A stretch of 64,000 nucleotides of DNA from Xanthomarina maritima (GTDB lineage: Bacteria; Bacteroidota; Bacteroidia; Flavobacteriales; Flavobacteriaceae), in NCBI RefSeq assembly GCF_008084905.1, contig NZ_VSFC01000032.1, positions 16,132 to 80,131 of the forward strand. Direction: 5' to 3'. The number at the start of each line of letters is the position of its first letter. Position 1 is the first letter of the stretch. The translations under genes were made by a program, and so were the position numbers. The notes beneath the pieces are model-generated. The model saw nothing but the letters and a program-made list of their open reading frames with translations. It made no database searches and had not been told where the DNA came from. This document shows positions 20,953 to 24,672 of the stretch, one piece after another.

Positions 20953-23900
20953 TTATTTTCTGTTTTCAATCCATTTACGGGCATTTACAAAAGCTTCCAA
21001 CCATGGTGAGACTTCGTCTTTTCTGCCTTGAGGATAGTTTGCCCAGTTCCATTGAAAGGTTGAACGTTCAATATGAGGCATGGTTACTAAATGTCTTCCT
21101 GTTTTATCGCACATCATAGCTGTATTGAAATCTGAACCATTAGGATTTGCTGGATATTTTTCATAACCATATTTTGCAACAATATTGTATTGATTTTCAG
21201 ATTTAGGCAAACTGAATTTTCCTTCACCATGTGAAATCCAAACACCTAATGTGCTACCTTCTAAAGTTGAAAGCATCACTGAATTATTTTTTTGTATTTT
21301 TACTGAAGTAAATGAACTTTCATGTTTATGCGAATCGTTATAGGTCATTTTTCCATGAACGTCATGTTCTGGATTGATGAGGTCTAATTCCATAAACAGT
21401 TGACAGCCATTGCAAATACCAACCGAAAGTGTGTCGTTACGTTTAAAGAAGTTATTTATAACTTGATTTGCTTTGTCATTATATTTTATGGCACCAGCCC
21501 AACCTTTTGCAGACCCTAAAACATCAGAGTTTGAGAATCCACCAACAGCACCCAAAAATTGGATATCTTCCAAAGTTTCACGTCCTGTTATTAAATCGGT
21601 CATATGGACATCTTTTACATCAAAACCAGCTAAATACATGGCGTTTGCCATTTCACGCTCGCTATTACTGCCTTTTTCTCGAAGAATAGCTGCTTTTGGT
21701 CGCTTTCTGTCATTGCGAGGAGCTTGAGACGTGGCAATCTCATCAGCAGATTGCTTCACTTCGTTCGCAATGACGTCTTTTAGTTTTCCTGTAAAGTGAT
21801 TTGGAAATATAAATTGTAAAGGTTGATTTTTATAATTATCAAATCTGTTTTTAGCTAAATTATTTGCTGTTTGTTTTTGATCGAGTAGGAAAGAGGTATT
21901 AAACCAAACATCACGCAACCTAGAAACTGTAAGCGTAAATACTTCTTGGTTGTTAATGACGCTTAAAACATCAGAATCTGTTACTTTTCCAATGTTGAAG
22001 AATTCAATTTTTGCATCTGCTAAAATTTGTTCTACTGAATTATCTTTTGCTTGAAAAACAATTCCTGAATTTTCAGAAAATAGAAGTTTTATTGAATCTT
22101 TTTCGGCTAATTCTGATAAGTCTAATTCGGCACCTAAATTAACATCAGCAAAACATAATTCTAGCAAAGTTGTAATTAATCCACCTGAAGCCACATCGTG
22201 TCCTGCAACAATTTTATTGTTTTTAATTAATTGTTGAATCACGTAAAAAGTGGATTTAAAGAAATTTACGTTTGTGATTGTAGGAGTGTTTTTTCCAATC
22301 TTATTTAATACTTGCGCAAATGAACTACCACCTAATTTAAAATCGTCTTGCGATAGATTAATATAATAGATATTTCCAGCATTCTTCTGAAAAACAGGCT
22401 CTACTACTTTTGTAATATCATTACAGTTTCCTGCAGCAGAAATAATAACAGTTCCAGGAGAAATAACTTCTTCTTTCGGATATTTTTGCTTCATAGAAAG
22501 CGAATCTTTTCCAGTAGGAACATTAATTCCTAATTCGATTGCAAATTCTGAAACAGCCTCTACGGCTTCATAAAGTCTTGCATCTTCACCTTCATTTTTA
22601 CAAGGCCACATCCAGTTTGCTGATAACGACACACTTTTTAAACCCTCTTTTAAAGGTGCCCAAACAATATTGGTTAGCGATTCTGCAATGGCATTTCTAC
22701 TTCCAGCTGTTGGAGAAATCAATCCCGAAATTGGCGCATGACCAACAGAGGTAGCAATTCCTTCTTTTCCTTTATAATCTAGAGCCATAACACCACAATT
22801 GTTTAAAGGCAATTGTAATGGTCCAGCACATTGTTGTTTGGCAACTTTACCTCCAACACATCGATCTACTTTGTTTGTTAACCAATCTTTACAAGCTACA
22901 GCTTCCAACTGTAACACTTGATCTAAATAGTCTAAGAAGTTTTTCGAATTGTAGCTAACTTCTTCATAGATTCTGTTAACTGTTTTATCTGTCATGATAG
23001 TTTTTGGAGAACTACCAAACATGTCTTCAAGAGCTAAATCCATTGGTTTGTCTCCTTTGGTTTTAGATTCAAAAGTAAAACGATCGTTTCCTGTTACATC
23101 TCCAACTGTATACATTGGAGAACGTTCGCGTTCAGCAATTTTTTGTAACGTATCAATATGTTTTTCAGCAATAACTAATCCCATTCTTTCTTGAGATTCG
23201 TTTCCAATAATTTCTTTAGCTGAAAGGGTTGGGTCTCCAACTGGTAATTTGTCTAAATCGATAAGGCCTCCAGTATCTTCAACTAATTCTGATAGACAAT
23301 TTAAATGTCCACCAGCTCCATGATCGTGAATAGAAACGATAAAATTTTCATCACTTTCCATCATGCCACGAACAGCATTGGCAGCACGTTTTTGCATTTC
23401 TGGGTTGGAACGTTGCACAGCATTTAATTCAATTCCAGAAGCAAATTCTCCAGTATCAGCCGAAGAAACTGCAGCTCCACCCATACCTATTCTGTAATTT
23501 TCGCCACCAAGAATTACTATTTTATCACCAACTTTAGGAGTGTCTTTTAAAGCTTGATCTGCTTTGCCATAGCCAATACCACCTGCTTGCATGATTACTT
23601 TATCGAAACCAAGTTTTCTAGCATCTTCTTCATGCTCAAACGTTAAAACTGAACCACAAATTAATGGTTGCCCAAATTTGTTTCCAAAGTCTGAAGCTCC
23701 ATTAGATGCTTTAATTAAAATATCCATTGGAGTTTGGTACAACCAAGGACGAGCTTCCATTTTTTGTTCCCATGGACGAGCTTCTTCCAATCTGGAATAA
23801 GATGTCATATACACTGCTGTTCCAGCTAATGGCAAAGAGCCTTTTCCTCCAGCCAATCTATCTCTAATTTCTCCACCAGAACCTGTTGCAGCACCATTAA

Positions 23901-24672
23901 AAGGCTCTACAGTAGTTGGAAAATTATGAGTTTCTGCTTTTAAGGAAATGACAGAATCAAATTCTTTTACTTGGTAATAGTCTGGTTTGTTAGCTGTTTT
24001 TGGAGCAAATTGTTCTACTCTTGGACCTTTTACAAAGGCCACATTATCTTTATAAGCCGAAACAATATCGTTTGGATGTTGTTTGGATGTTTCTTTGATG
24101 AGTTTGAATAGCGATGTCGGTTTTTCAATGCCATCTATTATAAATATACCATTAAATATTTTATGACGACAATGCTCTGAATTCACTTGTGAGAATCCAA
24201 ATACTTCAGAATCTGTTAATTTTCTCCCTATTTTTTTTGAGACACCTTCTAAATACTCTATTTCTTCGTCGTTTAAAGACAAGCCTTCTTGTTGATTGTA
24301 GGCCGAAATATCTTCAATATTAAGAATCGCTTCTGGCTGAATGTTGATAGTAAACGAGTCTTGATTCAAGCCTTGATATTTTTCTGAAATCATTGGATCG
24401 AAATCTTTGAAATCTTCAGAAACTGCTTCAAATTCTTCAATTCTAACGATACCTTCAATTCCCATGTTTTGAGTAATCTCAACAGCATTTGTACTCCAAG
24501 GTGTAATCATGGCTGCACGAGGCCCAACAAAAAAAGCATACAGAGATGCTTGTTCTATTTTTGGCTGGTTGCCAAATAACCACACTAATTTAGAGATGGT
24601 TTCAGTTGATAATTCTTTTGTTGCTTGAACAGCAAAAACTTTACTGTTTTGGTTTCCGAAGAAATGAATCAT
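20953..24672 (-). CDS. purL: phosphoribosylformylglycinamidine synthase (PurL with fused glutaminase)
   Basis: A roughly 1,239-residue large-form FGAM synthase, the fourth step of purine synthesis, turning FGAR, glutamine and ATP into FGAM. An N-terminal PurS-like domain, two AIR-synthase-like halves and a C-terminal glutaminase are present, the last with its nucleophile in G-I-C-N-G-C-Q near residue 1086 and W-I-S-H-G-E-G. The start M-I-H-F-F-G-N-Q-N at 24672 is preferred to an upstream ATG at 24708. Residues about 967-988, just before the glutaminase domain, are encoded by an inserted 66-bp palindromic repeat and look like a non-native linker. The frame is kept, so the enzyme is probably functional. 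Confidence 0.96.
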   Translation of the reverse strand: MIHFFGNQNSKVFAVQATKELSTETISKLVWLFGNQPKIEQASLYAFFVGPRAAMITPWSTNAVEITQNMGIEGIVRIEEFEAVSEDFKDFDPMISEKYQGLNQDSFTINIQPEAILNIEDISAYNQQEGLSLNDEEIEYLEGVSKKIGRKLTDSEVFGFSQVNSEHCRHKIFNGIFIIDGIEKPTSLFKLIKETSKQHPNDIVSAYKDNVAFVKGPRVEQFAPKTANKPDYYQVKEFDSVISLKAETHNFPTTVEPFNGAATGSGGEIRDRLAGGKGSLPLAGTAVYMTSYSRLEEARPWEQKMEARPWLYQTPMDILIKASNGASDFGNKFGQPLICGSVLTFEHEEDARKLGFDKVIMQAGGIGYGKADQALKDTPKVGDKIVILGGENYRIGMGGAAVSSADTGEFASGIELNAVQRSNPEMQKRAANAVRGMMESDENFIVSIHDHGAGGHLNCLSELVEDTGGLIDLDKLPVGDPTLSAKEIIGNESQERMGLVIAEKHIDTLQKIAERERSPMYTVGDVTGNDRFTFESKTKGDKPMDLALEDMFGSSPKTIMTDKTVNRIYEEVSYNSKNFLDYLDQVLQLEAVACKDWLTNKVDRCVGGKVAKQQCAGPLQLPLNNCGVMALDYKGKEGIATSVGHAPISGLISPTAGSRNAIAESLTNIVWAPLKEGLKSVSLSANWMWPCKNEGEDARLYEAVEAVSEFAIELGINVPTGKDSLSMKQKYPKEEVISPGTVIISAAGNCNDITKVVEPVFQKNAGNIYYINLSQDDFKLGGSSFAQVLNKIGKNTPTITNVNFFKSTFYVIQQLIKNNKIVAGHDVASGGLITTLLELCFADVNLGAELDLSELAEKDSIKLLFSENSGIVFQAKDNSVEQILADAKIEFFNIGKVTDSDVLSVINNQEVFTLTVSRLRDVWFNTSFLLDQKQTANNLAKNRFDNYKNQPLQFIFPNHFTGKLKDVIANEVKQSADEIATSQAPRNDRKRPKAAILREKGSNSEREMANAMYLAGFDVKDVHMTDLITGRETLEDIQFLGAVGGFSNSDVLGSAKGWAGAIKYNDKANQVINNFFKRNDTLSVGICNGCQLFMELDLINPEHDVHGKMTYNDSHKHESSFTSVKIQKNNSVMLSTLEGSTLGVWISHGEGKFSLPKSENQYNIVAKYGYEKYPANPNGSDFNTAMMCDKTGRHLVTMPHIERSTFQWNWANYPQGRKDEVSPWLEAFVNARKWIENRK
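21709..21774. repeat. 66-bp palindromic repeat inserted in frame in purL
   Basis: The element begins GTCATTGCGA and ends TCGCAATGAC, perfect 10-bp terminal inverted repeats. Inside it carries GAGGAGCTTGAGACGTGGCA and a TTGCTTCACTTCGTTCGC segment typical of dispersed repeats of the CATTGCGAGG type. Its 66 bp equal 22 codons, read on the purL strand as V-I-A-N-E-V-K-Q-S ... Q-A-P-R-N-D, the usual translation of this repeat class. It falls in the linker between the synthetase and glutaminase domains. Confidence 0.85.

What the first reader, a model, noticed from the sequence alone, without database searches (positions are those of the whole stretch)
21709..21774. Dispersed palindromic repeat inserted in frame within purL
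A 66-bp element with perfect 10-bp terminal inverted repeats GTCATTGCGA/TCGCAATGAC lies in the purL coding sequence and is translated as 22 residues in the linker between the FGAM synthase and glutaminase domains. Such repeats are normally intergenic; in-frame cases in essential genes are best known from Rickettsia palindromic elements. Here an essential purine gene tolerates it because length, frame and place are all permissive. This may show repeat mobility into coding DNA in Flavobacteriaceae.
Basis: partly seen in the sequence, partly recalled or inferred. Interest (0 to 1): 0.75.

Follow-up and report, generated by a model that had tools for sequence, protein, structure and literature searches.

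The report
Palindromic DNA repeats colonise PurL linker
A short mobile-looking palindrome has been inserted in frame into the purine-synthesis gene purL, and in related bacteria the same spot holds different repeat families or none, making it a natural record of stray repeats being built into a working enzyme.

Summary
In detail: window 21709-21774 is a 66-bp palindrome with perfect 10-bp ends, in frame in purL, adding 22 residues just before the glutaminase domain. It belongs to a dispersed family: 25 GTCATTGCGA sites in the genome against 2 for the reversed pattern, with CGTC/TGTC-tagged ends like CGTC-tagged REPs. Orthologues settle its origin. Of 156 genomes of its family (Flavobacteriaceae) read, 105 have a short linker and 49 have what I read as repeat-derived sequence there, from at least five palindrome families, some nested or chimeric. 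In 16 of 19 informative genera, members differ. Among 11 genomes with this family, shared amino acids in one arm use the same codon 97% of the time, against 55-57% in flanking purL. So DNA repeats entered, or were swapped in, recurrently. The same repeat sits in frame in Mfd, GltX, HemW, LeuS and others. In-frame REPs are known from Rickettsia and other bacteria (PMC3733652), so the kind is known; a recurrent multi-family slot is the new part. How the repeats move, and whether the 22 residues are made, is not shown.

The parts
20953..24672 (-). purL (phosphoribosylformylglycinamidine synthase), 1,239 aa from ATG at 24672; the mechanical ORF starts at TTG 24708
   Evidence: GATase_5, FGAR-AT domains; PDB PurL chains, best E 6e-209
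21708..21775 (-). Whole palindromic element including the outer tag bases (CGTC at the 5' end on the coding strand, TGTC on the other strand)
   Evidence: sequence; C or T before GTC at 53 of 57 sites in two relatives and at the purL slot
21709..21774 (-). 66-bp element as reported; codes VIANEVKQSADEIATSQAPRND
21765..21774 (.). Outer inverted repeat, arm 1 (GTCATTGCGA on the coding strand)
21709..21718 (.). Outer inverted repeat, arm 2
21748..21774 (-). Left unit GTCATTGCGAACGAAGTGAAGCAATCT, the arm whose synonymous codons are 97% identical among 11 genomes
   Evidence: fold of the tagged unit
21709..21740 (-). Right unit (AGATTGCCACGTCTCAAGCTCCTCGCAATGAC on the coding strand)
21734..21754 (.). 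Inner hairpin GCAATCT / AGATTGC with a 7-nt loop
20968..21702 (-). Glutaminase (GATase_5) domain directly downstream of the insert
   Evidence: residues 992-1236; alignments to PDB PurL chains start here

Best explanation
The 66-mer is a copy of a dispersed CGTC-tagged palindromic repeat, two tagged units head to head, that was inserted in frame into the linker between the FGAM-synthase part and the glutaminase domain of PurL. The linker is a recurrent slot: across the family, different palindrome families that circulate in these genomes have entered it, replaced one another, nested or decayed to halves. The element spreads as DNA. Selection removes copies that break a gene and keeps those that land in a flexible place and read as a stop-free, mostly hydrophilic peptide. 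Shown here: the insertion, the several families, the DNA-level identity, the differences inside genera, and further in-frame copies in other housekeeping proteins. Inferred: that the insert is close to neutral for PurL, and that the peptide is translated. Not resolved: whether each arrival is a new insertion at the same base or an exchange by recombination with other repeat copies.
For: (1) Dispersed repeat. (2) Empty sites: 105 of 156 genomes read have an 11-21 residue stretch there that I read as repeat-free. (3) Several families in the same slot, including a chimera (G261: 5' half of one family, 3' half of another) and nested copies (G094, G238, G210). (4) 16 of 19 genera with two or more genomes read and at least one repeat differ in state (two of the 16, g22 and g179, rest on weak labels); on a single-gene FastTree of 162 rows, 46 changes of type. 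(5) Codon identity at shared amino acids in 11 A-slot genomes: left arm 366 of 376, right arm 282 of 357, upstream flank 897 of 1,638, downstream flank 1,140 of 1,997. (6) Genomes whose slot holds a clear family-C element have more C copies elsewhere (10 against 62 genomes, p 0.0003); for A, 15 against 57, p 0.012 (from; weak C labels were counted among the 62, G261 and G294 among the 57; kinship not corrected for). (7) In the C-terminal half of PurL the slot is the only place with insertions of more than six columns among 144 aligned rows. (8) AlphaFold2 model, mean pLDDT 79: insert residues 280-295 under 50, with folded domains on both sides; three other stretches are also under 50. (9) In-frame copies elsewhere: Mfd, GltX, HemW, LeuS, a MeaB/methylmalonyl-CoA mutase fusion, a PabB-like enzyme and a second PurL site.
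Against: The own genome holds no second identical copy of the left arm, and some A-slot genomes hold few A copies (G151 9 sites against 7 reversed-pattern controls; G261 2; G350 2), so a within-genome source is not seen for each. Position and tag base are nearly constant (of 29 A, B, E or chimera cases, 23 located by script: GAC or GAT before GTC in 18, AAC 1, CCT 1, and 3 mis-hits in the flank; 6 had no GTCAY), which fits one early insertion followed by exchange as well as repeated insertion. The tree is of one gene. Labels were assigned by eye; several C labels (G256, G312, G358, G297, G264, G241, G372) are weak or halves, and G372 reads better as family E in the other orientation. Families B, D, E and F were not counted genome-wide. 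No expression or proteomic evidence.
Confidence: 0.87

Rival explanations
1. Ordinary ancestral linker: one old segment inherited vertically and diverging as protein.
For: Constant position and preceding Asp codon in most A, B and E cases.
Against: 105 of 156 genomes read lack it and 16 of 19 informative genera differ; synonymous codons are 97% alike in the left arm against 55-57% in flanks while its amino acids are only 76% alike, the opposite of protein-level conservation; unrelated palindromes sit in the same place.
Confidence: 0.04
2. A selected nucleotide element: the palindrome is kept in purL because its mRNA hairpin tunes purL expression or because a protein binds it, so DNA is conserved by function rather than by recent arrival.
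For: Stable hairpin (-22.9 kcal/mol as RNA); repeat slots fold more strongly than repeat-free linkers (median -25.6 kcal/mol at 99 nt for A, -2.7 at 39 nt for none); near-identical left arm in different genera.
Against: Two thirds of the relatives read have no element; unrelated families and broken halves occupy the slot; no Rfam match in 21200-22300; the same element sits in unrelated genes.
Confidence: 0.07
3. A version of the best explanation: in-place exchange rather than repeated insertion. One early insertion created a tagged site, and later repeats replaced each other there by gene conversion, single-strand annealing or template switching at shared ends.
For: Same base and tag in A, B and E; a chimera of two families (G261) and half elements (G383, G350, G327, G319, G102).
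Against: Sister genomes with short linkers and no repeat are common, so complete gain or loss also happens; gain and loss cannot be told apart on an unrooted single-gene tree.
Confidence: 0.35
4. Mobilised by a RAYT-type Y1 transposase acting on the repeat.
For: RAYTs are the proposed mobilisers of GTAG REPs (PMC3733652 abstract); Y1_Tnp found in 30 of 66 genomes, among them 9 of 17 with A or the chimera in the slot.
Against: None in the own genome nor in 36 of 66, including 8 of 17 with A or the chimera in the slot (G000, G151, G341, G252, G169, G350, G327, G261); the tag is CGTC, for which no transposase association was reported (PMC3733652). The family model also rings for other Y1 transposases, and whether any lies beside these repeats was not looked at.
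Confidence: 0.1

Closest known systems
CGTC-tagged REPs (Di Nocera, De Gregorio and Rocco 2013, PMC3733652)
   Same: Four-base CGTC or TGTC tag, A and T at the first stem positions, three-base tail, head-to-head dimers, mostly intergenic with some in-frame copies, no associated transposase; Bacteroidetes is among the phyla listed.
   Different: The left unit here has a 5-bp contiguous stem and a 12-nt loop instead of 8-9 bp and 4-5 nt, and the tail is CTG or CTC rather than CCA. The paper gives one case of different REPs at about the same site (recB in two Xanthomonas species); here one slot is used in many genera by several families.
Rickettsia palindromic elements, RPE (PMC2229807, passages; RPE-4 and RPE-6 are CGTC repeats in PMC3733652)
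   Same: Palindromes translated in frame inside conserved genes; one tested protein stayed active (passage).
   Different: RPEs are given as 105-146 bp in the passage; here 66 bp, in a non-rickettsial phylum. No RPE sequence was compared here.
REPINs and RAYTs (PMC3116915, PMC2817692; search listing only)
   Same: Two REP units in inverted orientation forming a longer hairpin (recalled).
   Different: Tag is not GTAG and the own genome has no Y1 transposase.
Other MITE-like elements fused in frame to genes (Correia/NEMIS, ERIC, RU; PMC2229807, passages)
   Same: Short non-autonomous repeats fused in frame to genes.
   Different: Given as about 100-200 bp; several with target-site duplications and TA ends, which were not tested here.

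Membership tests
CGTC-tagged REP | Unpaired CGTC or TGTC tag at the end of the unit | tested here: met
   CGTC and TGTC at the two ends in purL; unpaired in the fold of the left unit; C or T before GTC at 53 of 57 sites in two other genomes
CGTC-tagged REP | A and T at the first two stem positions | tested here: met
   Stem ATTGC/GCAAT in the left unit
CGTC-tagged REP | Stem 8-9 bp, loop 4-5 nt | tested here: not met
   Left unit folds as 5 bp with a 12-nt loop; the right unit's best fold does not form that stem; alone the units fold no better than shuffles (z -0.13 and 0.20)
CGTC-tagged REP | Three-base unpaired tail, mostly CCA | tested here: inconclusive
   Three unpaired bases are present but read CTG in the left unit
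CGTC-tagged REP | Head-to-head dimers predominate | tested here: met
   purL copy; 36 of 57 sites in two relatives have an opposite-facing end with up to 2 mismatches within 55-125 nt, against 109 of 2,000 random positions
CGTC-tagged REP | No dedicated transposase | tested here: inconclusive
   No Y1_Tnp in the own genome; 36 of 66 genomes lack it; other transposases not searched
Rickettsia palindromic element | Palindrome inserted in frame in conserved genes, absent from orthologues | tested here: met
   purL. For the other genes the in-frame copy was read but empty orthologues were not fetched
Rickettsia palindromic element | RPE sequence families of Rickettsia | not tested
   No RPE sequence was compared
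REPIN/RAYT system | GTAG tag and linked RAYT gene | tested here: not met
   Tag is CGTC/TGTC; no Y1_Tnp in the own genome

The most novel reading that the evidence does not exclude
The purL linker, and perhaps matching sites in Mfd, GltX and a mannosyltransferase-like membrane protein, is a landing pad where tagged palindromes are exchanged at a fixed base by a tag-guided process. Each species then carries in an essential enzyme a translated sample of its own current repeat population, and enzyme linkers in this family evolve mainly by swapping DNA repeats rather than by point mutation.
Probability: 0.3. Interest if true: 0.78.

Novelty: new variant of a known kind. Interest (0 to 1): 0.62.

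Why it matters
It shows in-frame palindromic insertion on a wide scale in Flavobacteriaceae and gives a dense natural series (empty, full, half, chimeric, nested, different families) at one base of one central metabolic gene. That makes two open questions testable by comparing close strains: how CGTC-type repeats without a known transposase move, and what a coding insertion must look like to survive. It also warns that linkers in these proteins may look like protein variation when they are DNA repeats.

Tried and rejected
RAYT mobilisation: no Y1_Tnp in the own genome, so not favoured. Vertical inheritance: rejected on codon identity and genus differences. Known structured RNA: no Rfam match in 21200-22300. 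A claim that only one reading frame is used: the antisense-frame peptide gave no long frame among 66 genomes (all listed frames 110 aa or less), but a PabB-like gene in G213 carries a unit in another frame (RHCEEARRGNPS), and only one of the five other frames was searched, so the rule is not absolute. A claim that the frame used is always the most hydrophilic: true among stop-free frames for the three A copies and one E copy tried, not for the C copy. A first AlphaFold2 run with 36 rows was poor (mean pLDDT 59) and is not used. Of ten elements in frames of 150 aa or more, five were read and four kept as likely insertions; one is a gene end, and the other five look like chance matches or overlaps from the snippet only. 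Families B, D, E and F were not counted genome-wide, so their dispersal rests on recurrence in several genomes and, for a relative of B, on one own-genome locus (L012). 228 of the 379 sampled family genomes with a PurL hit were not read: the result table was cut, and reading followed score and split hits, so 49 of 156 is not an unbiased rate (151 of the 156 come from that sample, 5 from the genus search). The 66 to 72 genomes were chosen by me and are rich in slot carriers. L252, L254 and L255 were named by likeness to L245 and L244, not by a family search; the mannosyltransferase name rests on NCBIfam matches under their cut-offs. Empty orthologues of Mfd, GltX and the other genes were not fetched.

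Papers: PMC3733652 as abstract, sections 6, 13, 15, first part of 17 and passages; PMC2229807, PMC12306157 and PMC5771137 as passages; PMC3116915 and PMC2817692 as listing only. Listed but not opened and possibly relevant: PMC10969869 (MITE review), PMC5896051 (Coxiella MITEs and proteins) and PMC2996958 (palindromic coding repeat in Mollicutes and others). No title or passage that I saw reports a purL or Flavobacteriaceae in-frame palindrome, in seven searches, which cover open PMC papers only.

Full report
What is there. The purL gene runs on the minus strand (20953-24672). At 21709-21774 the coding strand reads GTCATTGCGAACGAAGTGAAGCAATCT GCTGATG AGATTGCCACGTCTCAAGCTCCTCGCAATGAC: two inverted units around a short loop, with perfect 10-bp outer arms and 7-bp inner arms. 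It folds more stably than all 200 shuffles as DNA and as RNA. It is read in frame as 22 residues, 968-989 of the frame, and Pfam places the glutaminase domain from residue 992; alignments of this region to solved PurL chains begin right after the insert. A second AlphaFold2 run (144 rows, mean pLDDT 79) gives under 50 for insert residues 280-295 of the fragment and about 80 in the blocks on both sides; three other stretches of the fragment are also under 50.

It is a dispersed repeat. GTCATTGCGA occurs 25 times in the own genome against 2 for the pattern read backwards. BLAST with the element finds 27 places at E<=10, two others near full length. I printed 20 of the 27; the clear copies other than purL lie outside long frames, and three short matches inside long frames look like chance. 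In two relatives rich in the repeat (G383, G213), 57 sites in 53 elements were read: C or T stands before GTC at 53 of 57, and 36 of 57 have an opposite-facing end nearby against 109 of 2,000 random positions. Ten of the 53 lie in frames of 150 aa or more. One intergenic place in G383 is an array of seven.

The slot. PurL was found in all 8 genomes of the genus and in 379 of 397 sampled genomes of the family. I read 156 genomes (151 of those 379 and 5 more of the genus) plus 6 named records not already in the set. Of the 13 named records, six are the same genomes as G handles by their linker or contig and one (Flaviramulus) was too short for the tree. G002 is Xanthomarina gelatinilytica AK20: 5,005 of 5,005 overlapping bases agree with the named record. 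NCBI places that species in Flavobacteriaceae, and the window's genome is in the same genus in this tool's scheme. Labels, by eye: none 105, C 17, A 16, E 8, B 4, F 2, D 1, B/A chimera 1, unclear 2. A is the family of the finding; B starts GTCATTCAGA; C contains GGTCGAGCGCAGTCGAGA; D is CTTCGACTCCGCTCAG with its complement; E starts GTCACTTCGAG; F reads LTPxPSPKERG. Within the window's own genus the eight genomes carry A, A, B, B, B, C and two unclear. Of 16 genomes with two PurL-region matches, one (G072) has its second match elsewhere; the other 15, with hits split at the linker, all carry sequence that I read as repeat-derived. A scan of genome contigs (84,980 species) for an exact GTCATTGC at this distance from the glutaminase start found 13 records, titled Algibacter, Hyunsoonleella, Seonamhaeicola, Lacinutrix, Mariniflexile, Aestuariivivens, Flaviramulus, Xanthomarina and less exactly named bacteria.

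Why it is DNA that moves. In 11 A-slot genomes from the protein-based search, identical amino acids use identical codons in 366 of 376 comparisons in the left arm and 282 of 357 in the right, but only 897 of 1,638 upstream and 1,140 of 1,997 downstream. Amino-acid identity is 76% in the left arm, 65% in the right, 79% upstream and 98% downstream, so the pattern is the reverse of protein constraint. On a FastTree of PurL without the linker (162 rows, 683 columns) the type changes 46 times and presence changes 38 times; this is a single-gene tree. Independently of it, 16 of 19 genera with at least two genomes read and at least one repeat differ in state, two of them on weak labels. Genomes with a clear C in the slot hold more C elsewhere (p 0.0003), and likewise A more weakly (p 0.012), without correction for kinship.

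Not only purL. A 30-residue peptide of the A element, searched in 66 genomes, gave 17 matches with E under 0.01, all in stop-free frames of 395 aa or more: 11 purL linkers, a second site inside PurL of G261, and five other genes. Reading these and some weaker ones showed inserts, whole or decayed, at the same spot in Mfd of four genomes, in GltX of two, and in a mannosyltransferase-like membrane protein of three, plus HemW and a stretch before the NamZ domain. The weaker ones (E 0.07 to 1.2) would not stand alone; they are taken for the shared position. The sample of 53 elements added LeuS, a MeaB/methylmalonyl-CoA mutase fusion, a PabB-like enzyme and an unnamed 231-aa frame. In the three A copies tried, the frame used is the most hydrophilic of the stop-free ones and lacks Cys and Trp; this is not so for the C copy. 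A peptide of one antisense frame found many of the same elements but no long frame. The PabB-like gene uses another frame.

How it probably works. Tagged palindromes copy or recombine at low rate into many places; those in genes survive only in a flexible place and a stop-free frame. The inter-domain linker of PurL is such a place, the only one with large insertions in the C-terminal half of PurL. The tag base is nearly constant: in the 20 true locations found by script, C or T stands before GTC, as the tag predicts, so the Asp codon before the insert is partly the tag. This fits either tag-directed insertion at one base or one early insertion with later exchange. I cannot separate these. RAYT action in the own genome is unlikely, though 9 of 17 genomes with A or the chimera in the slot do hold a Y1 transposase.

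Place among known things. Di Nocera and colleagues described CGTC-tagged REPs in five phyla including Bacteroidetes, mostly head-to-head dimers, without transposase, with intragenic copies possibly in flexible linkers or loops, and with RPE-4 and RPE-6 of Rickettsia as members. The element here shares tag, dimer form and tail length but not stem and loop length, so I call it CGTC-REP-like rather than a member of their four families. The new part is the recurrent slot in one central gene, filled by several families across many genera, with codon-level evidence that DNA, not protein, is what is shared.

Noticed in passing
L279 1063-2130 (G383:C33): Intergenic array of seven CGTCATTGCGA units in about 1 kb, period about 124 bp, between a 109-aa ORF and a lipoprotein-like ORF that looks like a glycoside hydrolase (by eye). 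Clusters by coordinates also in G121 and G252, not read.
   Followed up: partly
L125 (G094) and L138 (G238), purL linker: A C-family palindrome carries further palindrome sequence in its arms (both arms in G094), all in frame.
   Followed up: partly
L031 (G004) and L036 (G311): PurL region identical over 186 residues although the tool puts the genomes in different genera (g1, g107): transfer, contamination or misplacement.
   Followed up: no
L245, L246, L252, L255: Mfd carries the same repeat, whole or decayed, at one spot in four genomes: a second slot like that of PurL.
   Followed up: partly
L292 (G213): LeuS has an A unit followed by a stretch (SDAERSRSDQN) that looks like another palindrome family, just before the editing domain.
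   Followed up: no
L090: A record titled only Bacteroidia bacterium has the A element in purL; its PurL falls among the family's rows in the tree.
   Followed up: partly
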